Shown here one piece after another: positions 40,253-62,267 of a stretch of DNA of 64,000 bases. Numbering within the stretch: position 1 is the first letter of the stretch; each line of letters begins with the position of its first letter. Origin of the DNA: Acidisphaera sp. S103 (lineage in GTDB: Bacteria; Pseudomonadota; Alphaproteobacteria; Acetobacterales; Acetobacteraceae); contig NZ_LMUJ01000059.1 of assembly GCF_009765975.1 (NCBI RefSeq), positions 57,612-121,611 on the forward strand. The letters run 5' to 3'. A program made the position numbers and the translations under genes. A model generated the notes under the pieces. That model did not search any database. It saw only the letters and a program-made list of their open reading frames with translations, and had not been told where the DNA came from.

Positions 40253-40537
40253 ATGCGTCTTGTTCAAGAAAACATTAGCCCCGCAGAAAAGGGCGAAATT
40301 CTATCAGATCTGGCTCAGTTGTTCCGAGACGTATTTGACGACCAGGAAATAGTCCTGGGGCCAGAGACAACTGCTGACGATATCGTCGGATGGGACTCGA
40401 TGTCACAGGTCAGACTGGCAGTTGAGATCGAGCACCGGTTCGGTGTAAAAATAAAATCAGCCAGGATGGAAAAACTACGCAGTGTCCGCGGGATACTTGA
40501 ACTGATTGGGGGGCGGTCGACGATGGTTCCCGTGTGA
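40253..40537 (+). CDS. Acyl carrier protein, first of two in the cluster
   Basis: 94 aa from ATG 40253 (GGAAAG upstream). The phosphopantetheine site is Ser49 in IVGWDSMSQVRLAVEIEHRF, using the D-S-M form rather than D-S-L. Acidic helices 1 and 2 are typical. Its order directly before an MBOAT and an SGNH gene resembles surface-acylation operons where a carrier protein delivers an activated group to the MBOAT. It needs a phosphopantetheinyl transferase from elsewhere in the genome. Confidence 0.88.
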   Translation: MRLVQENISPAEKGEILSDLAQLFRDVFDDQEIVLGPETTADDIVGWDSMSQVRLAVEIEHRFGVKIKSARMEKLRSVRGILELIGGRSTMVPV

Positions 40538-40567
40538 AACGGTAGCGCATCTTGCCCGCCGCCGGTC

Positions 40568-42181
40568 ATGCTGTTCAATTCCTACATTTTCGTATTTGCA
40601 TTCCTTCCGATTGCATTGTGCGGCTTCCATATTCTCGGACTGTTTGGTCGCCGGTTACCGGCCATATGGTTGGTTTTGACCTCGGTTCTCTTCTACGGTT
40701 GGTGGAATCCGCAATTCGTGGTTCTGCTACTGGCCTCAGTTGGCTTGAACTACCTCGCATCCGTAGTCATCAACGCCACCGAGCGCCAACCGACTGTGCA
40801 GACGGCGTGCTTGACGGCGGCGATAGTTGCCGACGTGTTCGTTCTGATCTACTATAAATATCTGACCAGCATTATTCAGGTCGCGATTGGAATGGGTTTG
40901 ATCGCGGACACCACAGCCAATATCGTTTTGCCACTTGGCATATCGTTCTTTACGTTCACGCAAATAGGATACTTGATCGATACGAAGCAGGGGATAACGA
41001 AAGACCGTCGGCTACTCAACTACGTTCTATTCGTGACCTTCTTTCCCCACCTGATCGCAGGCCCGATCCTGCATAACCAGGAGATCATGCCGCAGTTCGG
41101 CGAGCCGGCCACTTATCGGTTCTCCGGTGAAAACCTTTCTGTCGGCCTGTCGATCTTCGTGATCGGGCTTGTGAAAAAATGCTTGTTCGCGGATACAATC
41201 GGTACGGGTGTGTCCCAGGGTTTTGGGGCAGCAGACCATCTGCCGTTGCTCGCCGCCTGGAATGTGGCACTCTGCTACTCGTTGCAGTTATATTTCGATT
41301 TCTCTGGCTATTCCGATATGGCGATCGGGCTTGCACGCATGTTCAACGTGCGCTTCCCATTAAATTTCAACTCACCTTACAAGTCAGCGTCTATCATTGA
41401 GCATTGGCAGCGTTGGCATATGACACTGTCGCGCTACCTGGCGCTTTATCTATATAACCCAATCGCCTTGGCAGTCACACGCTGGCGCGCCAACCGCGGT
41501 CTCGGCATAAACAGAACCGCACAGACAAAACCCGGTGGGTTTGCCGCCATGGTGATGTTCCCGGTTGTAACCACTATGGCGCTTGCAGGCATTTGGCATG
41601 GAGCCGGTCTGAATTTCCTGGCGTTTGGCTTGTTGCATGGAATTTATCTCACGATCAACCATGCGTTTCGCATTTTCCGGCCGAGTTCCTCGAAAACACG
41701 GCCAAGCGGACGGCTCGGACACGGGGCCAAGATCCTGATCACCTATCTCGCTACACTGGTCGCATTGGTGTTTTTCCGCGCATCGTCGGTTCGCTCGGCG
41801 CTGTCCTTGTTAGGTGGGATGATCGGGCTCCATGGTGTCGATGCTCTTGCCATACCGAACGTCATCCTTGCTCACCTTGGCGTGCCAGGCGACGCGCTGG
41901 TAGCGAAAGGCCTCGTCGTCGACGTTTCGCTCGTCGATTTCGCAACAAGCACAAGCCACTTGGTCTGGATGGTGGGCCTCTACATCGTTGTATGGTGTCT
42001 GCCGAACACGCAACAGATCATGCGCCGGTTCACTCCGGCGCTTGGCATGATCCAACGAGGACCATTCGAACGGTTCGTCTGGCAGCCAACCCGAGGGTGG
42101 GCAGTGGCGATCGGCGTCGCAGCCTGTATTGGCGTGCTGGCGATCGGCGGCACATCCGAGTTTCTGTATTTCCAGTTTTAG
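40568..42181 (+). CDS. MBOAT-family O-acyltransferase (AlgI/DltB-like)
   Basis: 537 aa, 11 or so helices. Start LFNSYIFVFAFLPIAL is typical of AlgI. Core motifs: LPLGISFFTFTQIGYLID, FFPHLIAGPILH, LYFDFSGYSDMAIGLARMF, EHWQRWHMTLSRYL, and the catalytic His344 in ALAGIWHGAGLNFLAFG with His357 following. MBOATs of this group move an acyl or aminoacyl group from a donor inside the cell to a polymer outside. Here the adjacent ACP is the obvious donor (Dlt-like), and the SGNH protein encoded next is the extracytoplasmic partner. Confidence 0.92.
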   Translation: MLFNSYIFVFAFLPIALCGFHILGLFGRRLPAIWLVLTSVLFYGWWNPQFVVLLLASVGLNYLASVVINATERQPTVQTACLTAAIVADVFVLIYYKYLTSIIQVAIGMGLIADTTANIVLPLGISFFTFTQIGYLIDTKQGITKDRRLLNYVLFVTFFPHLIAGPILHNQEIMPQFGEPATYRFSGENLSVGLSIFVIGLVKKCLFADTIGTGVSQGFGAADHLPLLAAWNVALCYSLQLYFDFSGYSDMAIGLARMFNVRFPLNFNSPYKSASIIEHWQRWHMTLSRYLALYLYNPIALAVTRWRANRGLGINRTAQTKPGGFAAMVMFPVVTTMALAGIWHGAGLNFLAFGLLHGIYLTINHAFRIFRPSSSKTRPSGRLGHGAKILITYLATLVALVFFRASSVRSALSLLGGMIGLHGVDALAIPNVILAHLGVPGDALVAKGLVVDVSLVDFATSTSHLVWMVGLYIVVWCLPNTQQIMRRFTPALGMIQRGPFERFVWQPTRGWAVAIGVAACIGVLAIGGTSEFLYFQF

Positions 42182-42238
42182 TCGCCACACGGCAGCAGAA
42201 TATGAGCAGGTGTGTGGGCCATCGCTTGAGAAGAATGG

Positions 42239-43474
42239 ATGACTTCAATGACCCAAAGTCAGACCGCGGGACCGGGTATGTTGACGCAAGACCATACGCC
42301 GAGCCGCCGACTCAAAGAAGCGGCCGCCGAAACATCGGCCGAGGGATCGAGGAAGGTCGTTCCGACATTAGACAACACCGCGGACCAGCCGCGGGACCCA
42401 CCGTCCGCTGCTTTCCTGGCGTGGTTTGGGGTTGCCTTCGTGGTCGCGTTCGGGGTCGTGTGGATCTACGTCGCCATGGCTCCTATGGCTTTTCTCAGCC
42501 GCGACTACCCGCTTTGGGTTGCGAAACGAATGCTGATGGATGAATGTCGACTTGGATCGGTCTTGGTTTTCGGCGACAGTCGTGCGATGGCGGCTACGGT
42601 GCCAGACGTTATGCCGATGTCCGTCACCAATCTTGCACAGTCTGGTGCTAGCCCGATAGAAACCTATTTCGCCGTGCGCCGAGCGCTCCGCTGCCCAACC
42701 TCGCCGAAGCTCGTCGTGATTGCGCATAGTGCGTCGAAATTTGGCGGTGACTCGGATTACTGGACGTCTTTCGCCCGAAATGGCTTTCTGGACTATGGCG
42801 ACATGCGGGAGGTCGATCACGACGCAGCACGCTTGCACGACAAGGAAATCTTCGATTTGCCGTCCATGGATCATCTTCAACCGGCACTGCGGGATTTTCT
42901 GTTCTCCGTGCGTTTCCCACCACTCTATTTCGGTAGCCTGGTGAACGGCTTTATCGCCGCACGTTGGAAACACAATCACGACGCACTGCATGACGGTCTT
43001 TTGTCATCGGGCCATGCCGTATTCGGCAATCGCTCGGGCTCCAGCAGCATCGCCGGCGAAGGTCACAATCCGATTTACAAAACTTCACCGCTCATGAACT
43101 TGTACTTTTCTCGCACACTCGCACTATTATCCGACCGAGGTATCCCGGTGCTTCTTTTCTCGATGCCGGTCAACCGAGCGACCTATATGCGCATGCCGCC
43201 AGAATTCACCATTCGGTTCGAGGACTATCTTCAGGCAGAAGCTCGGCACTTCCCAGGCATACACGTGGTCGATCCGGTCATTCCCTGTTGGCCTGATAGA
43301 TTTTTTGGCGACGCTTGGCATTTCAACGCTCAAGGTGCCACCGCGTACAGCCGCGAACTCGGCGTTCGGTTACGGGACGTGCTTGCCGATGGGATCGTTA
43401 GAAACTCGCCGAACGCCTGTACCGATTCGATGCCAGCGATGGGTCCGTCTGAGTCAACCGTTACCTTGCGATAG
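42239..43474 (+). CDS. Membrane-anchored SGNH-hydrolase-like protein (AlgJ/AlgX/DltD-like role)
   Basis: 411 aa. A ~57-residue cytosolic tail, one transmembrane helix (LAWFGVAFVVAFGVVWIYVA), then an extracytoplasmic domain. SGNH block I is VLVFGDSRAMA (Ser114) and the last block GDAWHFNAQGA (Asp358, His361), so the catalytic triad is intact. NLAQSGASPIETYF fits block II. Such proteins sit beside MBOATs in alginate, cellulose and teichoic acid systems, passing the acyl group to the polymer or removing it. Strong operon context with the MBOAT upstream. Confidence 0.82.
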   Translation: MTSMTQSQTAGPGMLTQDHTPSRRLKEAAAETSAEGSRKVVPTLDNTADQPRDPPSAAFLAWFGVAFVVAFGVVWIYVAMAPMAFLSRDYPLWVAKRMLMDECRLGSVLVFGDSRAMAATVPDVMPMSVTNLAQSGASPIETYFAVRRALRCPTSPKLVVIAHSASKFGGDSDYWTSFARNGFLDYGDMREVDHDAARLHDKEIFDLPSMDHLQPALRDFLFSVRFPPLYFGSLVNGFIAARWKHNHDALHDGLLSSGHAVFGNRSGSSSIAGEGHNPIYKTSPLMNLYFSRTLALLSDRGIPVLLFSMPVNRATYMRMPPEFTIRFEDYLQAEARHFPGIHVVDPVIPCWPDRFFGDAWHFNAQGATAYSRELGVRLRDVLADGIVRNSPNACTDSMPAMGPSESTVTLR

Positions 43475-43569
43475 ACTACCTATATTGATCTAAGACGCTT
43501 CAGGACAATCGACCAAAGAGAGGACGTTACGGATCGAGTTCCACTGCCTAGACTTCTGAGGGACAAGTT

Positions 43570-45351
43570 TTGGCAGTTTGTTATGGGCTTACTCTTCATG
43601 TGCTCGACCGAATGAACATGCCCGTCGTCCAGGATGTGGCCGATCCAACCGATAGCCCGGACGATCGAACAACGGTCGTCCTTTCGGTTTCTCACGCCCC
43701 GCATGGGACTATTGAACACCAACCGGGACAGTCACCTCACATGCAGGCAGTGGCATTCGAGGGCTGCTTCGGATGGTTGCACCAGGCGACCGAGTCATTT
43801 CTGAGCGACACCGCGATCCTGCTGTGCCCCGGGTTGGGCCGCGACGCGAGTAGAGCTCACCGTTCATATCGCATAATGGCAAACCAGTTTGCCACCGAGG
43901 GCTACCCCACGCTCAGGTTTGACTATCCGGGCGCGGGTGATTCCTGTGAGATTGATGGCCGGGAATGTTGGACGGTTTGGCAACAAAGCGTACAAAATGC
44001 TGCAGACTGGCTGCGTGCCAACACCGGTGCTCGGCGAATCGTGATGATCGGTCTGCGTATCGGGGCAACACTTGCCGCCCTTGCCGCCTCCACCCGCGAC
44101 GATGTCGTCGGTCTCGTGCTGCTGGAACCCGTTCTACGCGGCAAATCCTATGTCAGTCAGCTTATGGTTGAGTCGCGCCTGCGAAGCGACTCTGCGACCA
44201 TGCCGGATGATGGTTTGGAAATCGATGGCCTTTGTCTCGATATGGGAACCGTCAAGCTATTGGGCCAAGTAGATTTGCGACAAGTCAAGTTATTACCTGG
44301 CTGCTCGATTTCCATCTTCAGCCAATTTCGTACACCCGTGTTGGCTGCATGTGTGGAAGCATGGCGCGATACCGGCGTTCCCATCGTTCTTCAAAATCTC
44401 GGCAGTCTAGACGCACTATTGCGACCCTGCCATTTGACCGACGGGCCCGACGCCGATTTCAGGCCAATTTTGTCTTGGCTGCAGGCTGCGATCCCCCTGC
44501 GGCAAATACCCCGCACGGCCGCGATAGCGTTACCGCCGAGCCTTGTGTCGCGTATCGCCACCTTGCGACCGGAAAATTCTGTCGAATCCCCGCTCCACTT
44601 TGGAGAAAATGGCCATCTGTTCGGCGTGCTGTGTCGTCCGACAGAGGACATTCCTTGCGATAGCGCCGTCATCATCGGCAATACCGGTGGCGATCCACAT
44701 TATGGTTTGGCGCGCTTCGCTGTCGAGTTCGCGCGCCGCCTGGCCGCCCAAGGAATAGCCTCGCTGCGCATCGACTTTGCCGGCCTTGGGGACAGCATCA
44801 GTTCCCCCGACGGCGGCGAGGATCTAACCCAAATATTCGGCATAGACCGAACGCCGGCGTTTGGTGCGGCCATCGATATGATGGAACGGTTGGGGTTCCA
44901 GCATTTCGCACTGAATGGACTGTGTTCAGGTGCTTATCACGCGTTTCTGGGTGCCCTCGCGGACGACCGGGTCACCGCGTTACTCTCGATCAATTTGCCA
45001 TGGTTTACCGTGCGCTATGATAAACCAGGACCGGAAAGCTTCGCTCGTCAAGCCATAGCGGAACTGTCGCATCGGCAGGTCCGCGCGTTGCTGCTATTCT
45101 CGGCCGGAGACCCGGGCATAAAAGCTTTGGAACAACATTTCGGACTGGAGGGCACCAATTTACGCGACACACCAAGCGTCGTCGCGTCGATCGTCGCCGG
45201 CTTGGACCATGACCTCACCCGCCGCACCATGCGACAGATCGCAGCGGATAAGATGATTGATTTCCTTCAGCAAAACCCGGCATTCCAGAGTAAATCACCG
45301 GCGGTCGATCAGAACACCGGCCCCGATCCCATTCATGCATCGGTCTCGTGA
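43570..45351 (+). CDS. Tandem alpha/beta-hydrolase fusion with unusual nucleophile elbows
   Basis: 593 aa from a TTG start with GAGGGA upstream; ATG 43615 is an alternative. Two hydrolase domains (~60-305 and ~340-570), each with a strand-oxyanion region (LLCPGLGRDASRAHRSY; VIIGNTGGDPHYG) and an acid-strand motif (LRFDYPGAGDS; LRIDFAGLGDS). The elbows deviate: the first is G-L-R163-I-G, lacking any nucleophile, the second G-L-C452-S-G, a Cys nucleophile as in exosortase-associated hydrolases. The second domain may be a thioesterase or acyltransferase acting on ACP-bound intermediates, the first structural. Confidence 0.78.
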   Translation: MAVCYGLTLHVLDRMNMPVVQDVADPTDSPDDRTTVVLSVSHAPHGTIEHQPGQSPHMQAVAFEGCFGWLHQATESFLSDTAILLCPGLGRDASRAHRSYRIMANQFATEGYPTLRFDYPGAGDSCEIDGRECWTVWQQSVQNAADWLRANTGARRIVMIGLRIGATLAALAASTRDDVVGLVLLEPVLRGKSYVSQLMVESRLRSDSATMPDDGLEIDGLCLDMGTVKLLGQVDLRQVKLLPGCSISIFSQFRTPVLAACVEAWRDTGVPIVLQNLGSLDALLRPCHLTDGPDADFRPILSWLQAAIPLRQIPRTAAIALPPSLVSRIATLRPENSVESPLHFGENGHLFGVLCRPTEDIPCDSAVIIGNTGGDPHYGLARFAVEFARRLAAQGIASLRIDFAGLGDSISSPDGGEDLTQIFGIDRTPAFGAAIDMMERLGFQHFALNGLCSGAYHAFLGALADDRVTALLSINLPWFTVRYDKPGPESFARQAIAELSHRQVRALLLFSAGDPGIKALEQHFGLEGTNLRDTPSVVASIVAGLDHDLTRRTMRQIAADKMIDFLQQNPAFQSKSPAVDQNTGPDPIHASVS

Positions 45352-45363
45352 GGAATTAGAACC

Positions 45364-45609
45364 ATGTCGATACGATCTATTATCCTGGAACGGGTTACCA
45401 TGATCGCGGAACAGCAAGGGAAGCAGCTTGCTCCTTTGACTGATGAACTACCCTTGTTGAATTCGGGGCTCGACTCGCTTTGCATCGCGATCGTCGTGGC
45501 GAATCTGGATGACGAACTTGGACTCGATCCTCTCTCTTCGGACGACCAGTCGGCGTTTCCTGTGACACTTGGCGATTTCATTCGGCTCTACGAAGATGCA
45601 GCAGCATAA
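45364..45609 (+). CDS. Acyl carrier protein, second copy
   Basis: 81 aa. Ser38 in LNSGLDSLCIAIVVANL is the phosphopantetheine site, the classic D-S-L form. It lies 12 bp after the double hydrolase and overlaps the ligase gene start by 14 bp, so it is probably the partner of that ligase. It differs from the first ACP in sequence and motif, suggesting distinct partners. Confidence 0.9.
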   Translation: MSIRSIILERVTMIAEQQGKQLAPLTDELPLLNSGLDSLCIAIVVANLDDELGLDPLSSDDQSAFPVTLGDFIRLYEDAAA

Positions 45610-46996
45610 AAGGCGATCGCTCTGGTCCCTTCTCGCACCCGCGGACGCGGCGCCGAGGCGGTTTATCGCCGACCCACTTACGCACCTTGCGATCCGCGAC
45701 CTTGCCCGCGGAACCGCCATGGGCGCACCGCTGGAGGCGCTTCGCGGACGGTCGGTGATGATTTCGACCGAACGACAACTGACGGCCGCATTGGCGCTGT
45801 GCGAACTTGATGGTATCGCCCGGCGCATGCTGCTTTGCACGCCGGACATGTCTCCCACCCATGTAAGTTCAGCCATTACGGATGCCGAAATCGACACGAT
45901 CGTAACTGATGGAGGCGGACCCGCAAAGAACGTTGCTCATGACACAAGCTTGATCTTCGTCGGCGATCGATTGAAGCCATGTGAAGGTACGCCCGACCGA
46001 AGCGTCGACACCGAATGGTTGCTGCTCACATCAGGCACGACGGGCCGGCCAAAGCTGGCCGTACACACGCTCGCAAGCCTGGTCGGGCCACTGAACGACG
46101 GTCTCGTGGTCCAGGATGCTCCCGTGTGGAGCACCTTCTATGACATTCGTCGCTACGGTGGTCTTCAGATTCTGCTACGAGCCTTCGTAGGTGGTGGTTC
46201 GATGGTGCTATCCAGTGCCGGGGAACCGGTAGCCGACTTCCTGAGTCGTGCTGGAGCCAATCGAGTGACCCATATCTCGGGTACCCCGTCCCATTGGCGT
46301 CGAACATTGATGAGTGCGGCGACGAGCAGGATGAATCCGCGCTATGTGCGCCTTTCGGGAGAGGCCTGTGATCAGGCAATATTGGACAACCTCCGGCAGG
46401 CCTATCCCGACGCCAACGTCGCGCATGCTTTTGCGTCGACCGAGGCGGGCGTCGCCTTCGATGTCCGTGATGGCCAGGCTGGGTTTCCCGCGTCCTTGAT
46501 TGGCCAAATCGGCAAAGACGTCTCGATACGTGTGGAGGACGGCTCTCTCCGCATCCGCTCCTCTCGCGTCGCGGACCGTGTCATCGGAAACCATGGCCGA
46601 GCCCTGTCGGACGCGGAGGGTTATGTCGATACCGGAGACATCGTCGAATTGCGTGGGGACCGCTACTATTTCGCCGGACGCCGGGAAGGCGTCATCAACG
46701 TCGGCGGCCTCAAAGTTCACCCTGAGACAATCGAAGCGGTGATCAACCAGCACCCTGCCGTGCATATGTCCCGTGTGTCAGGGCGTTCGAGTCCCATCAC
46801 CGGGGCGATTGCCGTTGCCGAAGTCGTCATAAACCCCTCGGCTGCCGCATGCGGCGTATCATTCGCGGCTATCAGGAACGAGATTCTTGGTTTGTGTCGG
46901 GGTCGGCTCGCACCCCACGAGATTCCAGTCACAATACGAGAAATTTCATCGCTGGAGATCGCGGCATCCGGTAAATTGGTCCGGCGACATGCGTAA
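45596..46996 (+). CDS. AMP-forming acyl/aminoacyl ligase, compact stand-alone form
   Basis: 466 aa. Adenylation signatures in order: LLLTSGTTGRPKLAVH (A3), FASTEAGVAF (A5), YVDTGDIVELRGDRYYFAGR (A7-A8), GVINVGGLKVHPETIE, and catalytic Lys in AASGKLVRR (A10). It is shorter than most acyl-CoA ligases because the N-terminal subdomain is reduced, as in DltA-like and exosortase-associated ligases. Overlap with the ACP gene and with the following SDR (8 bp) indicates a coupled unit. Likely activates a carboxylic or amino acid and loads the ACP. Substrate unknown. Confidence 0.85.
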   Translation: MQQHKRRSLWSLLAPADAAPRRFIADPLTHLAIRDLARGTAMGAPLEALRGRSVMISTERQLTAALALCELDGIARRMLLCTPDMSPTHVSSAITDAEIDTIVTDGGGPAKNVAHDTSLIFVGDRLKPCEGTPDRSVDTEWLLLTSGTTGRPKLAVHTLASLVGPLNDGLVVQDAPVWSTFYDIRRYGGLQILLRAFVGGGSMVLSSAGEPVADFLSRAGANRVTHISGTPSHWRRTLMSAATSRMNPRYVRLSGEACDQAILDNLRQAYPDANVAHAFASTEAGVAFDVRDGQAGFPASLIGQIGKDVSIRVEDGSLRIRSSRVADRVIGNHGRALSDAEGYVDTGDIVELRGDRYYFAGRREGVINVGGLKVHPETIEAVINQHPAVHMSRVSGRSSPITGAIAVAEVVINPSAAACGVSFAAIRNEILGLCRGRLAPHEIPVTIREISSLEIAASGKLVRRHA

Positions 46997-47723
46997 TGTG
47001 GTGGTGACGGGCGGAAGCCGCGGTTTGGGGCTGGGAATTTCTCAAAAGCTCGCGGCGTCCGGATTTCGGGTGGTGGCGATTGCCCGCAAAACCAATGACC
47101 AACTTGATAAGGCCATGGCGGAGGCCGCGAGTCGAGATCTGGGTTCGCTTCACTTCTGGCCATCTGACCTCGCGGATATCCCAGCGCTGCCCGCGCTGGT
47201 GAAAACATTGCGATCGGAATTCGGACCAATTTACGGCCTGGTCAATAACGCCGGGATCGGGACAGCCGGCATTCTCGCCAATATGAAGGACACCGATATC
47301 GAGGGGCTAATACGCCTTAACGTTCTTATGCCAATCACACTGACCAAATACATCGTTCGCTCCATGATGTCGGCGGGCAGCGGACGCATCGTAAACATCT
47401 CATCGATTGTCAGCCACACTGGATATAGCGGGCTTGCCGCCTACAGCGCCACCAAGGCTTCCATGCTGGGTTTTACACGCTCGCTAGCCCGAGAAGTTGG
47501 TCCGATTGGGATAACCGTCAATGCTATCTCACCGGGGTTCATCGATACCGAGATGACGCACGCTCTCAGCGTTGTCGATCGGGCAAAAATCGAGCGCCGT
47601 AGCGCGCTTCATCGGATGCCGGAAATCGACGACGTGGCCAATCTGGTTGACTATCTTTTCAGCGAGAAGGCTCGGAATATCACCGGGGTATCGATGACGG
47701 TTGACGCCGGAAATACGGCTTAG
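46989..47723 (+). CDS. Short-chain dehydrogenase/reductase (FabG-like)
   Basis: 244 aa. Cofactor motif VTGGSRGLGLGI, structural LVNNAGIGTAG, catalytic Ser139 (NISSI) and Tyr152-x3-Lys156 (AAYSATKAS), and PGFIDTEMTHALS. All active-site residues are present. FabG-like enzymes reduce 3-oxoacyl-ACP, so an ACP-bound intermediate is a reasonable substrate here. Start at ATG 46989, within the last codons of the ligase gene. Confidence 0.9.
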   Translation: MRNVVVTGGSRGLGLGISQKLAASGFRVVAIARKTNDQLDKAMAEAASRDLGSLHFWPSDLADIPALPALVKTLRSEFGPIYGLVNNAGIGTAGILANMKDTDIEGLIRLNVLMPITLTKYIVRSMMSAGSGRIVNISSIVSHTGYSGLAAYSATKASMLGFTRSLAREVGPIGITVNAISPGFIDTEMTHALSVVDRAKIERRSALHRMPEIDDVANLVDYLFSEKARNITGVSMTVDAGNTA

Positions 47724-47986
47724 CGGAGTCTGAAAATTCAACACCAATTTAGGCACCGCGGAATCGCATGACATTTGCCATTCTTCCGCTGCTGACGCCT
47801 GCACCTCCTCTTGTTTGGACTCTACTCCACATCCTGTTTTTCAGGCTATTTCAGCGGCCTATACTTTCGGATGAATTGCCATTCTAATGAGTAATCGAGA
47901 TGCTAGCGCAGCCAAATCGCAGTTGTCCGCGGACAAGGCGAGAGCTACGGCGTAAGATAAACACGTTCATCGGTGCTCCAGTTACC
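47724..47986. other. Intergenic gap before the MetY/MetA block
   Basis: 263 bp, the largest gap within the cluster, so the downstream genes may have their own promoter. I looked for SAM-II or SAH riboswitch features, usual upstream of alphaproteobacterial met genes, and did not recognise them. No ORF is supported. Confidence 0.4.
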
Positions 47987-49321
47987 ATGCACAGCGAGAC
48001 GATAGCTCTTCATGCTGGATTCGACATGGACCCCGCGACCCACGCAGTCGCGGTGCCGATCTATCAGACAGTTGCTTATGGTTTCGATAATGCCGAACAT
48101 GGCGCAGCCCTGTTCAATCTCGAGGTCGAGGGTCATCGCTATAGCCGAATCAGCAACCCGACCAATACGGTTCTCGAACGGCGCGTTGCGGCGCTGGAAG
48201 GGGGTGTGGAGGCCGTCAGCGTAAGCACTGGCCAAACCGCGCTTTATTACGCGGTATCGAACGTCTTGGGCCCGGGACAGAATTTGATCTCCGTGCCGCA
48301 ACTCTATGGCACGACGCATTCCTTGTTCGCTCACTTCCTTCCCAACACCGGCGTTCAGGTCCGATTCGCGGAGAGCGATCACCCATCTGATATCGAAAAG
48401 CTTATCGATCGCGATACACGGGCGGTATTTTGCGAGAGCGTGGGTAATCCGGCCGGGAACATCGCGGACATTGCCGGACTTGCGGCCGTCGCCCACAGGC
48501 ATGGGATACCTTTGGTCGTTGACAATACGGTTGCGACACCAATCCTGTTGCGCCCGATTGATCATGGCGCGGATATTGTTATTCATTCACTCACCAAATT
48601 CATGGGCGGCCATGGCACCACACTTGGTGGCATAATCGTCGATGGTGGGAAATTTCCCTGGGCCGAACACGGTGAACGGTTTCCGATGTTCAGCCAACCA
48701 GATCCCTCCTACCACGGCCTTGTCTATACGGACCATTTCGGTCCGGCGGCCTACGCGGCACGCTGCCGCAGCGTCTATTTGCGGACAACCGGGGCGGCGT
48801 TGTCTCCATTCAACGCATTTCTGCTGCTTCAAGGCATCGAGACCGTCGCGATCCGCATCGATCGTCATGTCGAAAACGCGAGGCGGGTTGCGGAATTTCT
48901 GCGTGACGACTCACGGGTCGAATGGATCAACTATGCCGGGTTCGAGGACAATCCCTATCACCCCCTGGTCCGGAAATATCTCGGCGGCCGTGCCTGCTCA
49001 CTGATGACCTTCGGGGTAAAAGGGGGATTCAGCGGTGGCGTACGATTCTATGATGCGCTGAAACTTATCAAGCGCGTCGTCAACCTGGGCGACTCCAAAT
49101 CCCTGGCGTGTCATCCCGCCTCCACGACCCATCGTCAGATGCCGCCAGATGTACAACTGAAGGCTGGCGTAACGCCGGCTACGATCAGACTGAGTATCGG
49201 AATTGAGCACGCCGACGACATCATCGCTGATATCGACCACGCACTCGCAGCGGCGGCGGCCGCTTTTGACCTCGTTGATAAAGACCATATCAGGCACCCG
49301 TCCATTGAAGGTCGACAATGA
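47987..49321 (+). CDS. MetY-like O-acyl-homoserine sulfhydrylase / gamma-replacement PLP enzyme
   Basis: 444 aa from ATG 47987. Cys/Met-metabolism PLP family, O-acetylhomoserine aminocarboxypropyltransferase branch: YSRISNPTNTVLERRVAALE, SVPQLYGTTHSLF, VVDNTVATPILLRP, and Schiff-base Lys204 in VIHSLTKFMGGHGTTLGG. MetY replaces the acyloxy group of O-acyl-homoserine with sulfide or another nucleophile. The gene overlaps the homoserine acyltransferase-like gene (ATGA), so the two form a two-step module. In a biosynthetic cluster the nucleophile might be something other than sulfide (inference). Confidence 0.88.
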   Translation: MHSETIALHAGFDMDPATHAVAVPIYQTVAYGFDNAEHGAALFNLEVEGHRYSRISNPTNTVLERRVAALEGGVEAVSVSTGQTALYYAVSNVLGPGQNLISVPQLYGTTHSLFAHFLPNTGVQVRFAESDHPSDIEKLIDRDTRAVFCESVGNPAGNIADIAGLAAVAHRHGIPLVVDNTVATPILLRPIDHGADIVIHSLTKFMGGHGTTLGGIIVDGGKFPWAEHGERFPMFSQPDPSYHGLVYTDHFGPAAYAARCRSVYLRTTGAALSPFNAFLLLQGIETVAIRIDRHVENARRVAEFLRDDSRVEWINYAGFEDNPYHPLVRKYLGGRACSLMTFGVKGGFSGGVRFYDALKLIKRVVNLGDSKSLACHPASTTHRQMPPDVQLKAGVTPATIRLSIGIEHADDIIADIDHALAAAAAAFDLVDKDHIRHPSIEGRQ

Positions 49322-50367
49322 CCAGGCCCGACGACTCGTTCCTCACTCAGTATGGCGGCGAGTCGAACCGCCCTCTGACTATCGGACTGGTCAACAATGC
49401 CTCGGACCGAGGGCTGAAGTCCACGGAACGCCAATTCCTGAACGTGCTACGGGCGGCATCCAACCACTTGGAACTAAAGTTCCGCTTCTTTACCTGCCCA
49501 GAGATACGGCGCTCGGCACGTCCGCTATCGTTCACGGGTTCTCCCTACGCAAGCGTCGACGAATTATACGATATGCCGCTGAATGCGTTGATCGTCACGG
49601 GCATGGAACCGCAAGCAACTATGTTGCGAGACGAACCGATTCAGGAAAGCCTGTCCAGGCTCGCGGATTGGGCGGAGGAACAAGCGGTTCCTGTGATATG
49701 GTCGTGTCTTGCCGCCCATGCCGCTGTTCTGCACCTCGATGAAATTCCGAGATGTCGGCTCCCCGCAAAGTTGTCCGGCGTCTTCGAGTGCGACATCGCG
49801 GCAGCCGATCACAGATTGATGGCCGGGCTTCCGTCGCGGTGGGCCATGCCTCACTCGCGTTACAACGGTCTGAATGAAGATCTTCTCATCGCAAAGGGCT
49901 ATCAAATCCTTTCACGATCGCACGAAGCGGCCGTCAACATTTTCTCAAAGCAAGGTGCCACGACCTTCGTGTTCGTCCAGGGGCATCCGGAGTATGATGG
50001 CGACACGCTTCTGCGTGAATATAATCGGGACGTTGGTCGATTTGCCCTGGGGGAAAAACAAGAATTCCCGCTGGCCCCTAAACACTACTTTACTGCTGAT
50101 TTGGAGGCCACACTCAACGAACTACGTGAGAATGCATTACAAGGTAGGCCCGATCCGGCGATATTGGGTGTCATATCCAAGCTGGTTGGGAACCAAGCGC
50201 ATTCCAACACTTGGCATATACCCGCGATCCAGTTCTATGCGAACTGGCTGACAGCCATTGCGAGAGATGATCTACGCAATTCCAGCAGCGATCGAACGCG
50301 CTTCTGCGGCAAAGAGCAGCGGCTGTGGGCGAATCCGGCTGCGGCCGAGGTTGCATCGATCCAATGA
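49318..50367 (+). CDS. MetA-like homoserine O-acyltransferase
   Basis: 349 aa, glutamine-amidotransferase-like fold. Nucleophile Cys130 in VIWSCLAAHAAVL and the His223-x-Glu225 pair in VQGHPEYDGDTL match E. coli MetA Cys142/His235/Glu237; LSGVFECDI and MPHSRYNGLNED are also conserved. It should acylate homoserine with a succinyl or acetyl group, supplying the substrate of the MetY-like enzyme. The C-terminal part is longer and more diverged (NALQGRPDPAILGVISKLVG). Coupled on both sides by ATGA overlaps. Confidence 0.88.
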   Translation: MTRPDDSFLTQYGGESNRPLTIGLVNNASDRGLKSTERQFLNVLRAASNHLELKFRFFTCPEIRRSARPLSFTGSPYASVDELYDMPLNALIVTGMEPQATMLRDEPIQESLSRLADWAEEQAVPVIWSCLAAHAAVLHLDEIPRCRLPAKLSGVFECDIAAADHRLMAGLPSRWAMPHSRYNGLNEDLLIAKGYQILSRSHEAAVNIFSKQGATTFVFVQGHPEYDGDTLLREYNRDVGRFALGEKQEFPLAPKHYFTADLEATLNELRENALQGRPDPAILGVISKLVGNQAHSNTWHIPAIQFYANWLTAIARDDLRNSSSDRTRFCGKEQRLWANPAAAEVASIQ

Positions 50368-51830
50368 ACCTCAAAGATGTGTCCGTCGCACCGATAGCTT
50401 CTTTGTTTTATGAGCCGGATGACCGGGAACGATGGGACGATTTCCTAACGATGGCCTTGAGTGAGGCCCTCCAGAGCGTTCCAGGAAGACCCGTGAACCC
50501 CATCCTGGATATTAACGTCTTTAGACAAACTTTACAGAGTTTTGATTTTCAGCTGCCCCGCCCGCTGTTCGAATTACTTCCATGGGTTATCGACCAACTG
50601 CAAAGCGGGGTCGTCCAGATGACCCATCCGCGTTATTTTGGTCTCTTCAATCCATCCCCTTCGTTCCCCGCGGAGTGTGCCGAACGCATTGTGTCGGCAT
50701 TCAACCCCCAGCTTGCCACCTCGACGACATCGCCCATCCCTGTCGAGATTGAAGCGCATGTCATCCGGTCGATCGCGCATCGGGCAGGGCTTCCACCCGG
50801 TTCCGCCGGTCACTTCACGACAGGTGGGTCCGAGGCAAATTTCACCGCTCTCATCTGTGCCTTGACGAACGCCAACCCGCGCTTCGGAGCTGATGGAGTT
50901 GCCGCCTTTGCGGGATCTCCCACCATCTACGTCTCCCAAGACGCGCATCTGGCATGGCACAAGATCGCACATCAGTGCGGGATAGGCCGCGCGTCTGTGC
51001 GTCTGATAGAAACAGACCATCTGGGTCGGATGGAGCTAAGTTCGCTGTTCGATATGATTGGATCTGACAGGGCTGCAGGCCACACGCCCGTCATGGTTGT
51101 TGCGACGGCCGGAACGACGGGCGCCGGGATGATCGACCCCCTGGCTGATTGCGCCGCTATCGCCCGTGTGGTGGGCGCCTGGTTTCATATTGATGCGGCG
51201 TGGGGTGGCGCGCTTATCGCATCGGACCGCTTGCGAGGCGCGTTGGCCGGAATCGAAACAGCGGATTCGATAACGGTGGATGGGCACAAATGGTTTGCGA
51301 CAACCATGGCCTGCGGGATGTTCATCACCCGAGATGCAAGACTTCTCTCTGACGCGTTTCACGTCTCGACGAACTACATGCCGTCCAACGTCCAACATCT
51401 CGATCCGTATGTCACGACAGCCCAATGGTCGCGGCGCTTCCTCGGGCTTCGGCTCTTTCTCTCTCTGGCCGCGGCGGGGTGGGGCGAATACGCAAAATAT
51501 CTGGAGCGGTCGGTTGCCCTGATAGATTTCCTGAAGGAGCAACTGGTCGAACTTGGATGGACGGTGGCGAATGACTCGCCGTTGGCCGTACTATGCGTAG
51601 AACCGCCGATGGGCTTCCCGAGCGTTCGTTCTATCGTACGCGATATCGTTGCTTCGGGTTCTGCCTGGATATCGATCACGACGTTCAAAGGCCGGGATGT
51701 TATTCGGATCTGTGTCACCAATGGTCGGACGATGCCGCGAGATATCCAAGCCTTGGTGCGATCTCTGCGACACTTCGCACGCGGTGGAGAAGATCTGGCG
51801 CGGGATAGTCAAGAAGAGGGCGTCAAGTAA
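50364..51830 (+). CDS. PLP-dependent group II amino acid decarboxylase
   Basis: 488 aa from ATG 50364. Fold-type I decarboxylase: MTHPRYFGLFNPSPSFPAE, GHFTTGGSEANFTAL, stacking His195 (SQDAHLAWHK), Asp277 (FHIDAAWGGALI) and Schiff-base Lys309 (TVDGHKWFATTMACG). The family includes glutamate, tyrosine, diaminobutyrate and cysteine-sulfinate decarboxylases. Given its coupling to MetA and MetY, the substrate may be a homoserine-derived amino acid, giving a functionalised propylamine. It is not the fold-III decarboxylase found in exosortase A clusters. Confidence 0.87.
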   Translation: MNLKDVSVAPIASLFYEPDDRERWDDFLTMALSEALQSVPGRPVNPILDINVFRQTLQSFDFQLPRPLFELLPWVIDQLQSGVVQMTHPRYFGLFNPSPSFPAECAERIVSAFNPQLATSTTSPIPVEIEAHVIRSIAHRAGLPPGSAGHFTTGGSEANFTALICALTNANPRFGADGVAAFAGSPTIYVSQDAHLAWHKIAHQCGIGRASVRLIETDHLGRMELSSLFDMIGSDRAAGHTPVMVVATAGTTGAGMIDPLADCAAIARVVGAWFHIDAAWGGALIASDRLRGALAGIETADSITVDGHKWFATTMACGMFITRDARLLSDAFHVSTNYMPSNVQHLDPYVTTAQWSRRFLGLRLFLSLAAAGWGEYAKYLERSVALIDFLKEQLVELGWTVANDSPLAVLCVEPPMGFPSVRSIVRDIVASGSAWISITTFKGRDVIRICVTNGRTMPRDIQALVRSLRHFARGGEDLARDSQEEGVK

Positions 51831-51921
51831 AAAACATTAATTCAACATCTACCGGCAATGGCTGGGTTATCGGTCTCTGTCGGACTAATCATCTTCCTGC
51901 ATCACTTCGGAGTGCCCAATC

Positions 51922-52620
51922 ATGAAGGTCGTGGAACGCTTCCAATATCAGAAAACAATAGATGAAATTTGTCAGTTGGAATGGGACTCGCTAACAGCTC
52001 ACGACATGATCTGTGTGGCGTGGGCGTATTACTATTTCTCGATCCAATTCCGGGAGAACCTCAAAATCGCCCGTAGCATTTATCCGAATGACGAAAAACT
52101 GAAAGATCTGGAGCGCGAGGAATGCGATACTGACAACCTTTCTCCCTGGCCAGGAGTAGCCGATGTTGGAGAAAAGATGAACCATGACGAGTACATGCGA
52201 AGAGTGCTCGAAATGCACTCTATCGATTTGTCGCAAGTGCGATATTTCAAATCGGTCGGAGAAGGCTACCTGGAAGAAATGCGGGGACTGGATGACGTTT
52301 CCCGGGCGCTCAGCATTGCGAGCTATGAAGATGGCGGTCTCGAAAGGATATTTAGGGCCATTCTCGAGTTTCGTCATTGGGACAACGCACTTTTAGGCGC
52401 GTTCAGGCATTTCCTGTCCGAACACATACGTTTCGACTGTGACCCAACTCAGGGTCATGGCGCGCTGAGTCGTCATTTAAGGCCAGACGATCGCGTTCTG
52501 CCCCTGTGGAGCTCTTTCAAGTCTATTCTTATCACATGTGTGCCCAGATTGTCTCCCTGGTCGGGATCTGGCTCCGAGCTTCCTGCATGGGAAGGCTCCA
52601 TTGCGCAACAGGAGAGCTGA
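51922..52620 (+). CDS. Heme-oxygenase-like fold protein, candidate diiron oxidase (HDO)
   Basis: 232 aa, all-helical. WAYYYFSIQFRENLKIARSI is the helix typical of TenA/heme-oxygenase-like redox enzymes. Candidate metal ligands: Glu65-67 (EREE), His88, Glu137, His168, Asp172 or Asp174 and His179; the last four lie in SYEDGGLERI and SEHIRFDCDPTQGHGALSRH, recalling the H-x3-D...H set of UndA/BesC/SznF-type HDOs. Those enzymes use O2 to cleave C-C bonds or oxidise N. Placed between the decarboxylase (91-bp gap) and the FATP-like ligase (adjacent codons). The function is inferred. Confidence 0.6.
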   Translation: MKVVERFQYQKTIDEICQLEWDSLTAHDMICVAWAYYYFSIQFRENLKIARSIYPNDEKLKDLEREECDTDNLSPWPGVADVGEKMNHDEYMRRVLEMHSIDLSQVRYFKSVGEGYLEEMRGLDDVSRALSIASYEDGGLERIFRAILEFRHWDNALLGAFRHFLSEHIRFDCDPTQGHGALSRHLRPDDRVLPLWSSFKSILITCVPRLSPWSGSGSELPAWEGSIAQQES

Positions 52621-54390
52621 GTGGTCTCTCGCTCCGCGGTGAATGATTGGGTGCGTGCGCTTCAATACAAAAAGCAACTGTACGCCAGTTCCAATACGAC
52701 GCTTCTTTCGATGATCGAGGATCTGGCCGAAACGCGGGGGGATGCGCTCGCACTGTTTGGGCAAGGCGGGCAGTTGACCTATCACGGGCTTGTCGAGCGG
52801 TCGTATTGCTACGCAAACTGGACGTTGACCCAGGCCATAGCAAAAGGCGACGTCGTTGGCCTGCTAATGCCAAACTGCACGGATTACGTTGCTATTTGGC
52901 TAGGTATCACGCAAGCCGGCTGTGCCGTTGCACTGATCAACACGAATTTGGTCGGCGATACCCTTGCCCATGCCATCCGCGTAGCCGGGGCGAATCATCT
53001 TATCGTGGCAGATTCCCTGTTGAAAACTGTCACGGCCACGAAACTTCCGGCCGGAATGCGCGTTTGGGTGCACGGCGACGGCGCCGAGAGCAATCTGCCG
53101 CGGATTGACCGCGATATTGGACGTTACGGCGGTGAGCGCACGAATGCTCTCCGCGCACGACTGCCCTCGCGTCGAGATCGGGCTCTGCTAATCTACACAT
53201 CCGGGACAACTGGCGCTCCGAAGGCCGCCAACGTCACACATGAGAGAGTGCTGGAATGGAGCTTCTGGTTCGCCGGTATGACGGACGCCCAACCTGAAGA
53301 CCGGCTATACAATTGCCTTCCTATGTACCACAGTACGGGCGGCGTGGTCGCGATCGGGTCGATGCTGGTTGTCGGCGGGTCGGTCATGATCCGCCCCCGC
53401 TTCTCAGTCAGCCGCTTTTGGGATGAAGTTGTCAGCGGGGGCTGCACGGTTTTCCAATATATCGGCGAACTTTGCCGCTATCTCGCAAGAAGCGAGCCAC
53501 AGCCGCTGGAATCCACTCATCGACTCCGGCTTTGCTGCGGAAACGGTTTGCGCGGCGACGTGTGGGACGAATTTCAAAGTCGATTCCGCATCCCGCGGAT
53601 CCTGGAATTCTATGCCGCCACGGAAGGCCACGTATCCTTGTACAATTGCGAGGGGAAGGTGGGCGCCATTGGACGTATTCCAGCTTTCCTCGCGCATCGA
53701 TTTCCGGTGGAAATTATTCGGTCCGATATTGATACCGGCCAACCACTGCGTGACGACGGCGGGTTTTGCATTCGGTGCGCGATAGATGAACCTGGAGAGG
53801 CAATAGGGCAAATCAGCGGCGGAAGCTCATCACCGGAAAGGCAGTTCGACGGTTATTCCGATCCGAAAGCATCCGATGCCAAAGTGCTGCGCGACGTATT
53901 CTCCGTAGGGGATCGTTGGTTCCGGACAGGTGATTTGATGCGGAAGGACAAGGCCGGCTACTATTATTTCGTCGATCGCATCGGCGACACGTTTCGCTGG
54001 AAGGGCGAAAACGTCTCTACCGCAGAGGTGGCCTCGGTGGTTGCGGCCTGCAAGGGTGTCATTGACTCGGTTGTCTACGGGGTGGCGATCCCGGGTAAAG
54101 AAGGCCGTGCCGGCATGGCGGCGATCACCACGGATGAAAGCTTCGACTTTGCAGTACTCAATGCGCACCTCCATGCAAATTTACCAGCATATGCCTGCCC
54201 ATTATTCATTCGCCTCTGCAGTGACATTCCCAGGACCGGCACCTTTAAATTGATGAAAAATTCCCTGGCGCTTGAGGGTCTGTATCCGTCCATGCCAACC
54301 GACACAGTTTGGTTCAAAGACCAAAAGGTCTGTCCGGGATCATTCGTGCGTCTGGCGTCGCGACCTGATGACCAGTTGGCTTCGATTTGA
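52621..54390 (+). CDS. FATP/very-long-chain acyl-CoA synthetase-like AMP ligase
   Basis: 589 aa starting at a GTG directly after the previous stop. Adenylation motifs: LLIYTSGTTGAPKAANVTHE, FYAATEGHVSLYNCEGKVGA, RTGDLMRKDKAGYYYFVDR, GDTFRWKGENVSTAEVASVV, and PRTGTFKLMK near the end. The DTFRWKGENVST and YNCEGKVGA segments are characteristic of the FATP (SLC27) branch, which activates long-chain or bile acids to CoA thioesters. It probably provides a fatty acyl donor distinct from the product of the compact ligase. Ends 10 bp from a convergent flippase gene. Confidence 0.88.
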   Translation: MVSRSAVNDWVRALQYKKQLYASSNTTLLSMIEDLAETRGDALALFGQGGQLTYHGLVERSYCYANWTLTQAIAKGDVVGLLMPNCTDYVAIWLGITQAGCAVALINTNLVGDTLAHAIRVAGANHLIVADSLLKTVTATKLPAGMRVWVHGDGAESNLPRIDRDIGRYGGERTNALRARLPSRRDRALLIYTSGTTGAPKAANVTHERVLEWSFWFAGMTDAQPEDRLYNCLPMYHSTGGVVAIGSMLVVGGSVMIRPRFSVSRFWDEVVSGGCTVFQYIGELCRYLARSEPQPLESTHRLRLCCGNGLRGDVWDEFQSRFRIPRILEFYAATEGHVSLYNCEGKVGAIGRIPAFLAHRFPVEIIRSDIDTGQPLRDDGGFCIRCAIDEPGEAIGQISGGSSSPERQFDGYSDPKASDAKVLRDVFSVGDRWFRTGDLMRKDKAGYYYFVDRIGDTFRWKGENVSTAEVASVVAACKGVIDSVVYGVAIPGKEGRAGMAAITTDESFDFAVLNAHLHANLPAYACPLFIRLCSDIPRTGTFKLMKNSLALEGLYPSMPTDTVWFKDQKVCPGSFVRLASRPDDQLASI

Positions 54391-61643: not shown

Positions 61644-62267
61644 TCAGAAATATCGTTCGAAAATATCGATGACGTCGCCGGGCCGCACCTCCATGCCGCG
61701 CGGCACGCGCCCTTCGACCGAATGCCCGTCGCTGGTGCGCAAAATGGATGCGTATCCAGTCTCGGCCCGGTACGAGAATCCGCCGGCGATCGCGACCGCG
61801 GTCAGCACCGTCATCCCCGGCTGATACGGGTATTCGCCGGGCTTGCTGACCTCACCCAGGATGAACACTGGCCGGTATTGCAGAACTTCAACCGAGACGC
61901 TGGGATTAAGCAGGACTTTCTTGACCGTAAGTTGCTTGGCAATGCTTTGCTCCAACTCGGTCGTTGTCAGTCCATTGGCCGGAATGGTCCCAAGCAGAGG
62001 GATCGCGATATCGCCCCGATCGTTGACCCTGAACTGTCCGGTGAGTCGCTCCTCGCCAAAGGTGATGATGCGCACGTCTTCACCAACGCCAAGCCGGTAG
62101 GGTCCGGCCGGTGTGGCCTGCAGAGGCGGCAGACCGGACCCCGGCGAGCACGCGGCCAGCAGCAGGCACACCGCCGCTACGCCGGCTTTGGCGGACCGGA
62201 ATGGTCTCTTGGCAGAAGAGTGGGCAACCTCCGTTTCTGGCGCCCGGATCGGAATTGATCGCGTCAT
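61644..62267 (-). CDS. Polysaccharide export lipoprotein (Wza/GumB-like)
   Basis: 207 aa. Lipobox CLLLAACSPG after a 30-residue leader. Poly_export domain: YRLGVGEDVRIITFGEERLT, IPLLGTIPANGLTTTELEQ and VSVEVLQYRPVFILGEVSKP; an SLBB-like domain follows (GEYPYQPGMTVLTAVAIAGG). It is short compared with Wza (about 380 aa), closer to GumB, lacking the outer-membrane helix barrel, so a separate OM barrel (perhaps 58738-60072) may complete the channel. Coupled to the transglycosylase gene by a 4-bp overlap. Confidence 0.88.
   Translation of the reverse strand: MTRSIPIRAPETEVAHSSAKRPFRSAKAGVAAVCLLLAACSPGSGLPPLQATPAGPYRLGVGEDVRIITFGEERLTGQFRVNDRGDIAIPLLGTIPANGLTTTELEQSIAKQLTVKKVLLNPSVSVEVLQYRPVFILGEVSKPGEYPYQPGMTVLTAVAIAGGFSYRAETGYASILRTSDGHSVEGRVPRGMEVRPGDVIDIFERYF

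What the first reader, a model, noticed from the sequence alone, without database searches (positions are those of the whole stretch)
40253..54390. A 12-gene cluster that looks like a Dlt/Alg-type surface-acylation machine joined to its own building-block pathway
Seen: ACP, MBOAT, SGNH protein, double hydrolase, ACP, AMP ligase, SDR, MetY-like, MetA-like, PLP decarboxylase, HDO-like protein, FATP-like ligase, all on one strand with several stop-start overlaps. Known: in Dlt systems an AMP ligase (DltA) loads a carrier (DltC), an MBOAT (DltB) moves the group outward and DltD, a surface protein of SGNH type, helps place it; AlgI/AlgJ/AlgX are analogous for alginate. Inference: this cluster makes a homoserine-derived amino acid or amine, loads it on an ACP, and the MBOAT/SGNH pair decorates the exported polysaccharide with it. 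I know no described system with this exact set.
Basis: partly seen in the sequence, partly recalled or inferred. Interest (0 to 1): 0.88.

Follow-up and report, generated by a model that had tools for sequence, protein, structure and literature searches.

The report
Two-part sugar-coat decoration gene cluster
A run of twelve bacterial genes joins a known kind of machine for hanging chemical groups on the cell's outer sugar coat to an undescribed, separately inherited pathway that probably makes the group, using a putative new iron-enzyme family.

Summary
In detail: twelve co-directional genes (40253-54390), mostly as named, inside an exopolysaccharide locus of an Acetobacteraceae-like genome. 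(1) ACP1-MBOAT-SGNH is a surface-acylation cassette: its MBOAT ends in FLYFQF, the FXYXXF acyl-shuttle motif, and keeps the universal His. It also occurs alone in relatives. (2) METY, META, PLPDC, the orphan 'HDO' gene, ACP2-LIG1-SDR and FATP form a second module. In 200 family genomes HDO (12), LIG1 (13) and PLPDC (13) share 11 for each pair, sometimes on different contigs; MBOAT does not track them, and 31 of 35 HDO loci lack it. (3) The full twelve, in the same order, recur in three other genomes, with a reduced copy in a fourth. 'HDO' has no credible Pfam, NCBIfam or PDB match; its conserved E/H/E/H/D/H set resembles diiron HDO ligands, but no fold was predicted. Best reading: a carrier-protein-dependent MBOAT-SGNH system fed by a dedicated homoserine-derived pathway. 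Product, transferred group and target glycan are unknown.

The parts
40253..40537 (+). ACP1, carrier protein of the MBOAT cassette
   Evidence: PF00550 34.5 bits; directly upstream of MBOAT in the window and in L031, L032, L035, L040; matched in 13 of 19 other MBOAT regions
40568..42181 (+). MBOAT acyltransferase with C-terminal FLYFQF acyl-shuttle motif (532-537) and conserved H344
   Evidence: PF03062; TIGR04091 DltB 178 bits, under its cut-off 375; F532, Y534, F537 and H344 in at least 95% of 31 long rows, which include duplicate entries
42239..43474 (+). SGNH-type protein with an N-terminal transmembrane-like stretch (by eye), G112-D113-S114 and D358..H361
   Evidence: no family over cut-off; residues invariant in 5 rows
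43570..45351 (+). HYD, two alpha/beta hydrolase domains; first elbow has Arg163, second has Cys452 with D514 and H547
   Evidence: TIGR03101 and TIGR03100 match the two halves, under cut-off; residues invariant in 6 rows; roles of the residues inferred; TTG start uncertain
45364..45609 (+). ACP2, carrier protein of the module (D37-S38-L39)
   Evidence: no library match; DSL invariant in 15 rows
45596..46996 (+). LIG1, compact AMP-forming ligase
   Evidence: PF00501 and PF13193; profile A2 closest to 2-succinylbenzoate-CoA ligase in the PDB at 86 bits
46989..47723 (+). SDR, FabG-like reductase (S139, Y152, K156)
   Evidence: PF00106; TIGR01830 199 bits under cut-off 298; residues invariant in 15 rows
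47987..49321 (+). METY, O-acylhomoserine sulfhydrylase-like PLP enzyme (K204)
   Evidence: TIGR01326 591 bits over cut-off 495; 477 bits to PDB 8sf5; K204 invariant in 22 rows
49318..50367 (+). META, homoserine O-acyltransferase-like (C130, H223, E225)
   Evidence: PF04204; residues invariant in 13 of 13 rows
50364..51830 (+). PLPDC, group II PLP decarboxylase-like
   Evidence: PF00282; PDB relatives are mostly decarboxylases; start placed at the ATG that overlaps the META stop (from and the sequence)
51922..52620 (+). HDO, orphan family, putative diiron oxygenase (E84, H88, E136, H168, D172, H179)
   Evidence: no credible Pfam, NCBIfam or PDB match; residue pattern in 35 rows
52621..54390 (+). 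FATP-like acyl-CoA synthetase
   Evidence: NF006134 669 bits over cut-off 625
54401..55840 (-). Wzx-like flippase of the EPS locus (context)
   Evidence: PF01943 73.1 bits
58735..60072 (+). EpsL-like outer membrane protein (context)
   Evidence: PF10082 132.6 bits; TIGR03014 under cut-off
61644..62267 (-). Wza-like polysaccharide export protein (context)
   Evidence: PF02563 70 bits

Best explanation
The twelve genes are two units joined end to end. Unit A (ACP1-MBOAT-SGNH) is a surface acylation cassette: an acyl group on the phosphopantetheine of ACP1 is taken by the MBOAT (His344), passed to Tyr534 of its own C-terminal FLYFQF motif, then to Ser114 of the membrane-anchored SGNH protein and onto an outer glycan, probably the exopolysaccharide of this locus. 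Unit B is a dedicated pathway that makes the group: META acylates homoserine, METY replaces that acyl group by a nucleophile (most simply a thiol) to give a gamma-substituted amino acid, the HDO-like protein oxidises it, PLPDC decarboxylates an amino acid of the pathway, and LIG1-ACP2-SDR (with FATP) activate and reduce an acyl partner. HYD, whose second domain has a Cys where a nucleophile is expected, would move the finished group between ACP2 and ACP1. Shown by sequence: the gene sets, their co-inheritance, the motifs, the conserved fusion. Inferred from families: every reaction. Unknown: product, nucleophile, target.
For: Co-occurrence in the same 200 family genomes: HDO 12, LIG1 13 at 1e-40, PLPDC 13 at 1e-60, each pair sharing 11; Fisher p 2e-15 to 2e-14 by genome and 2e-9 by genus for the two HDO pairs (8 shared genera); genomes are related, so p is only a guide. 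In G109, G010, G128, G145 and G080 LIG1 lies on another contig than HDO. Neighbourhood: of 35 HDO loci METY is near 23, PLPDC 19, META 17, SDR 15, ACP2 14, LIG1 14, FATP 12, in shuffled orders, with identity thresholds that I set. Fusion: identical twelve-gene order in window, L031, L035 and L040, and a reduced version in L032. MBOAT motif and His (motif from passages of PMC12148441). Expected catalytic residues conserved in METY, META, SDR, ACP2, SGNH (the roles are recalled). EPS markers near 8 of 26 core loci and 0 of 9 solitary HDO loci (p 0.08). FkbH, which I recall as a loader of glyceryl on carriers, is matched in 4 of 19 stand-alone MBOAT regions, over its cut-off in the two tested, which suggests that the supply unit is exchangeable.
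Against: 22 of 26 core loci have no MBOAT and SGNH match within the stretch held, so unit B does not need unit A beside it. MBOAT presence hardly tracks HDO: 5 of 12 against 31 of 188, p 0.04, and LIG1 likewise, 5 of 13, p 0.06. L042 and L051 carry a thioesterase instead, as if a free product were released. PLPDC removes a carboxylate, which leaves it unclear what LIG1 activates. No hhalign support for the HDO name against PF14518 members (probability 0.9%, E 0.063). The L035 composite shows no EPS marker match. Only METY and FATP exceed a curated NCBIfam cut-off among the rows shown; the other genes are family-level or motif-level calls.
Confidence: 0.5

Rival explanations
1. Unit B makes a free small molecule (for example a rhizobitoxine-like or thiol-containing amino acid or amine used as antimetabolite, metal ligand or signal) and is only a neighbour to, or occasionally coupled with, glycan decoration.
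For: 22 of the 26 core loci lack MBOAT and SGNH in the stretch held; thioesterases in L042 and L051; a minimal set HDO-METY-META-PLPDC without EPS marker match in L044; MetY-like enzymes with other nucleophiles are known in rhizobitoxine and loline pathways (recalled).
Against: Conserved twelve-gene order in four genomes whose proteins are only about 40-78% identical to the window's; EPS markers beside several MBOAT-less core loci, L038, L050, L057, L063, L064.
Confidence: 0.27
2. Unit B makes an acyl or amino group that is put on a sugar nucleotide or lipid-linked sugar inside the cell by an N-acyltransferase, and the MBOAT cassette adds something else (for example acetyl) to the same polymer.
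For: A GNAT-looking gene lies near the core in L050, L043 and L063 (two tested had no Pfam match, so the name is by eye); ACP1 and ACP2 are different carriers; 19 of 19 further MBOAT regions fetched lack unit B genes (known composites were left out of that set).
Against: No homologue of these GNAT-looking genes was found in the window; the fusion keeps ACP1-MBOAT-SGNH-HYD directly upstream.
Confidence: 0.15
3. METY and META are ordinary methionine genes and the neighbourhood is accidental.
For: METY passes the general sulfhydrylase subfamily cut-off; the genome's only other MetA-like match is 25% identical.
Against: The genome has two other long MetY-like matches at 46-47%; recurrent linkage of METY with HDO and PLPDC; HDO, LIG1 and PLPDC are each absent from 187 or 188 of 200 family genomes.
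Confidence: 0.05

Closest known systems
Dlt system (DltA, DltB, DltC, DltD, DltX), D-alanylation of teichoic acids
   Same: carrier protein, MBOAT, SGNH-type partner and AMP ligase in one cluster; FXYXXF shuttle motif
   Different: the motif is on the MBOAT itself instead of a DltX microprotein; MBOAT scores 178 against the DltB cut-off 375; extra genes METY, META, PLPDC, HDO; two carriers
PatA-PatB and AlgI-AlgJ/X O-acetylation (MBOAT-SGNH pairs)
   Same: MBOAT with C-terminal FXYXXF and universal His, SGNH partner (passages of PMC12148441)
   Different: that paper says MBOAT-SGNH pathways other than Dlt lack a carrier protein and use acyl-CoA; here ACP1 is directly upstream in five of five composites and matched in 13 of 19 other MBOAT regions
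Exosortase A associated EPS genes (hydrolases TIGR03100/TIGR03101, ligase TIGR03098)
   Same: two hydrolase halves, carrier proteins and a ligase in an EPS locus
   Different: scores under the curated cut-offs; no exosortase was sought
HDO oxygenases (MboA, AetD, BesC, UndA, SznF)
   Same: E/H/E/H/D/H order of conserved residues, H-x3-D spacing (MboA ligands from passages of PMC13185094)
   Different: no sequence match; gap lengths differ from MboA by up to six residues; chemistry unknown

Membership tests
MBOAT-SGNH surface acyltransferase pair | MBOAT fold family | tested here: met
   PF03062 60.1 bits against cut-off 27
MBOAT-SGNH surface acyltransferase pair | universal MBOAT His | tested here: met
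   H344 in GIWHGA, in at least 95% of 31 long rows, duplicates included
MBOAT-SGNH surface acyltransferase pair | C-terminal FXYXXF acyl-shuttle motif | tested here: met
   FLYFQF in the window; 35 of 36 rows printed (some the same gene fetched twice) end in an F[LV]Y[FWY]xF form, L087 does not; motif definition from passages of PMC12148441
MBOAT-SGNH surface acyltransferase pair | SGNH partner with Ser and Asp-x-x-His | tested here: met
   G112 D113 S114, D358, H361 invariant in 5 rows; no SGNH profile matched
MBOAT-SGNH surface acyltransferase pair | acyl transfer to an outer polymer | not testable with these tools
   needs chemistry
Dlt system proper | DltB equivalog score | tested here: not met
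   TIGR04091 178 bits against 375
Dlt system proper | DltX microprotein | not tested
   no dedicated search; the shuttle motif lies on the MBOAT
HDO diiron oxygenases | 3-His/3-carboxylate ligand set in order | tested here: inconclusive
   E84, H88, E136, D172, H179 in 35 of 35 rows, H168 in 97%; MboA spacing is matched at tolerance 6 and not at 1 to 5; 1 of 20000 shuffles matches at 6, a tolerance reached after the smaller ones failed
HDO diiron oxygenases | heme-oxygenase-like fold | not testable with these tools
   structure prediction switched off
HDO diiron oxygenases | match to a known HDO-like profile | tested here: not met
   no PF14518, PF11251 or HDO-named NCBIfam match for 15 members at E up to 10; hhalign of 35 rows against 20 PF14518 members probability 0.9%
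O-acylhomoserine sulfhydrylase (MetY) | subfamily score | tested here: met
   TIGR01326 591 over 495; the closest equivalog NF004757, 646 under 790, is not met
Homoserine O-acyltransferase (MetA) | family score and Cys-His-Glu | tested here: met
   PF04204 179.8 over 27; C130, H223, E225 invariant in 13 of 13 rows; triad identity recalled
Homoserine O-acyltransferase (MetA) | MetA equivalog score | tested here: not met
   NF003776 325 under 358; TIGR01001 and NF047918 far under

The most novel reading that the evidence does not exclude
A new family of diiron oxygenases acts in an undescribed homoserine-derived pathway whose product, built on a carrier protein, is delivered to an extracellular polysaccharide by an ACP-dependent MBOAT-SGNH pair: a hybrid of Dlt-like carrier supply and Pat/Alg-like MBOAT with exchangeable supply units (FkbH in some relatives, this module in others).
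Probability: 0.33. Interest if true: 0.82.

Novelty: new variant of a known kind. Interest (0 to 1): 0.62.

Why it matters
If true, it extends MBOAT-SGNH glycan acylation beyond acetyl and D-alanyl to groups made by a dedicated oxidative amino-acid pathway, and shows that the supply side is a swappable unit. It also offers an orphan protein family, recurrently linked to MetA-like, MetY-like and PLP decarboxylase genes and with a conserved six-residue metal-ligand-like pattern, as a concrete target for discovering a new oxygenase reaction.

Tried and rejected
Searched PF11251 (DUF3050) in 190 class genomes to obtain HDO-like kin: 0 of 190, and 0 of 14 control genomes rang, so it says nothing. 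PF14518 members were found (18 of 96 genomes), but 20 of them gave no significant hhalign match. Plasmid records: no HDO match. An aldehyde-synthase role for PLPDC was considered and dropped because the catalytic-loop Tyr seems kept (residue role recalled, read by eye). Reading the LIG1 substrate type from an aspartate near motif A4 was dropped: the alignment did not place it clearly. The acyl donor of META could not be read: the position that I recall as the succinyl/acetyl switch varies among the 13 rows (by eye). In the HDO tree the five composites need one change (0 of 500 shuffles as low) but with support of only 42/33 and 21 of 35 rows left ungrouped, so a single assembly event is neither shown nor excluded. 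That no described system has this set rests on held-library searches only: 0 papers; some searches listed 3, 2, 2 and 8 papers, none of whose listings named such a cluster. Papers: PMC13185094 abstract, introduction and passages; PMC12148441 abstract, start of the introduction and passages; the others only as search listings.
Full report
What was checked. The window lies in an 8.37 Mb genome (G000:C109:57612-121611). The 35 HDO loci found among named genomes are mostly Acetobacteraceae or Rhodospirillales by title (Acidisoma, Rhodopila, Rhodovastum, Acidocella and MAGs), with some from Methylocystis, Methylobacteriaceae and Xanthobacteraceae MAGs and two MAG contigs titled Acidobacteria and Chloroflexi. 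That scan used two peptide patterns and may miss distant kin. Several loci come from one assembly (for example three each from Rhodopila globiformis and one Rhodopila MAG), and many are the same assemblies as the G-handle genomes, so the two sets are not independent. The twelve genes exist as described. PLPDC most likely starts at the ATG at 50364, overlapping the META stop; the TTG start of HYD is uncertain.

Surroundings. The cluster sits in an exopolysaccharide locus: glycosyltransferases, a Wzx-like flippase, an EpsL-like outer membrane protein and a Wza-like exporter in the window, and by eye Wzc-, Wzy- and WcaJ-like genes beyond its right edge.

Two units, not one. I searched single proteins of the module in the same 200 genomes of the family. 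HDO is in 12, LIG1 in 13 at 1e-40 and PLPDC in 13 at 1e-60. Every pair shares 11 genomes; at genus level HDO shares 8 genera with each of the others. In some genomes they lie on different contigs. The exceptions are G012 (no LIG1), G010 (no PLPDC), G006 (LIG1 alone), G068 (LIG1 and PLPDC, contig ends in PLPDC) and G114 (PLPDC, with METY); some are incomplete assemblies. MBOAT at 1e-80 is in 36 of 200 and shares only 5 with HDO. At class level HDO is in 2 of 385 and PLPDC in 4 of 385, sharing G000 and G443; G421 and G345 have PLPDC at 44-46% identity without HDO.

Neighbourhoods. Of the 35 HDO loci, 26 have at least one of METY, META, PLPDC, ACP2, LIG1, SDR, FATP within reach, in several orders and orientations; 9 are solitary (thresholds set; many contigs are short, so counts are lower bounds). 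Ten loci hold METY, META, PLPDC, ACP2, LIG1 and SDR together. MBOAT and SGNH occur in four (L031, L032, L035, L040). L031, L035 and L040 have the complete twelve in the window's order, ACP1 included. L032 keeps ACP1-MBOAT-SGNH-HYD-SDR-META-HDO, with two short METY pieces and no ACP2, LIG1, PLPDC or FATP match, while the same MAG has a fuller core locus elsewhere (L065). Of the 52 MBOAT places listed, three are composites; I fetched 19 of the other 49. None of the 19 has a match to METY, META, PLPDC, HDO, LIG1 or ACP2, 13 have ACP1 and 4 have an FkbH-like protein, above the TIGR01686 cut-off in the two tested. Two of these 19 contigs are only about 5 kb long.

Unit A. The MBOAT ends in FLYFQF. 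FXYXXF is the motif where PatA forms an acyl-tyrosine that is passed to the SGNH partner, and where DltX does the same in Dlt (passages of PMC12148441). F532, Y534, F537 and H344 are conserved in at least 95% of 31 long rows. The same paper holds that MBOAT-SGNH pathways other than Dlt lack a carrier protein and use acyl-CoA. Here a carrier protein is next to a PatA-type MBOAT, so the cassette looks like a hybrid of the two described forms. That ACP1 is the donor is inferred from adjacency.

Unit B. METY and META keep their expected catalytic residues. METY passes the sulfhydrylase subfamily cut-off but not the closest equivalog; META passes Pfam but not the MetA equivalogs. So the sulfhydrylase and homoserine acyltransferase chemistry is likely by family, with substrates open. 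PLPDC is about equally near to decarboxylases of different substrates. LIG1 is distant from all solved ligases (best 86 bits).

The HDO call. The gene has no credible match in Pfam, NCBIfam or PDB sequences, alone, as 15 members or as a profile (the matches listed are one-member hits to unrelated families, best E 0.0019). In 35 sequences E84, H88, E136, D172 and H179 are invariant and H168 is at 97%. This is the order of the ligands printed for MboA (E86, H89, E143, H172, D176, H181; passages of PMC13185094). Spacing agrees only within six residues per gap, not within five or less; 1 of 20000 shuffles of the conserved residues does so at six, a tolerance reached after the smaller ones failed. 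hhalign against 20 PF14518 proteins gave probability 0.9%. The name is therefore a reasoned guess.

Link to polysaccharide. EPS markers lie near 8 of 26 core loci and 0 of 9 solitary loci (p 0.08; the markers come from this genome, which favours near kin). Five of the eight are MBOAT-less (L038, L050, L057, L063, L064). The L035 composite shows no marker match in L035 or in its further flanks L167 and L168, although by eye glycosyltransferase-like genes stand at the near end of L168, about 7-11 kb from FATP. So EPS is the likely but not the only possible target.

Verdict. A conserved fusion of a known type of surface-acylation cassette with an undescribed, independently inherited biosynthetic module. 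Product and mechanism of unit B remain open.

Noticed in passing
L034, L046, L048, L054, L055, L058, L059, L061, L062: HDO homologues without any core gene match nearby, in Methylocystis-type, Rhodopila and other genomes; they may act in a different pathway or with genes placed elsewhere.
   Followed up: partly
L111, L117, L118, L119: FkbH-like proteins are in the same region as ACP1 and MBOAT in stand-alone cassettes (profile checked for L111 and L117), suggesting a different acyl supply for the same export unit.
   Followed up: partly
L125 (G000:C74): A second ACP1-MBOAT-SGNH cassette (32-40% identical) in the window's own genome, without the module.
   Followed up: partly
L032:8400-8700: Two short METY pieces in a composite locus that lacks ACP2, LIG1, PLPDC and FATP matches, while the same MAG holds a fuller core locus, L065.
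   Followed up: no
L050:8156-9067, L043:13220-14077, L063:6581-7477: A GNAT-looking protein near the core genes; no Pfam match for the two tested.
   Followed up: partly
L042:4889-5974, L051:14567-15634: Thioesterase-domain proteins (PF00975) in core loci without MBOAT.
   Followed up: partly
L053:8231-9619: A class III aminotransferase (PF00202) between PLPDC and HDO in a locus without METY and META matches.
   Followed up: partly
L155:9965-11575, L156:12716-14308: A solute-binding-protein-like gene near LIG1, SDR and FATP in both loci; PF00496 tested in L156 only.
   Followed up: no
window:15901-21911: RND-type efflux set (HlyD, AcrB and OEP families), unrelated to the finding.
   Followed up: no
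window:32414-34330: Protein with a Hint domain behind a cadherin-like repeat.
   Followed up: no
window:38469-39974: Acyltransferase family 3 protein (PF01757) on the minus strand just upstream of the cluster, another possible EPS-acylating enzyme.
   Followed up: no
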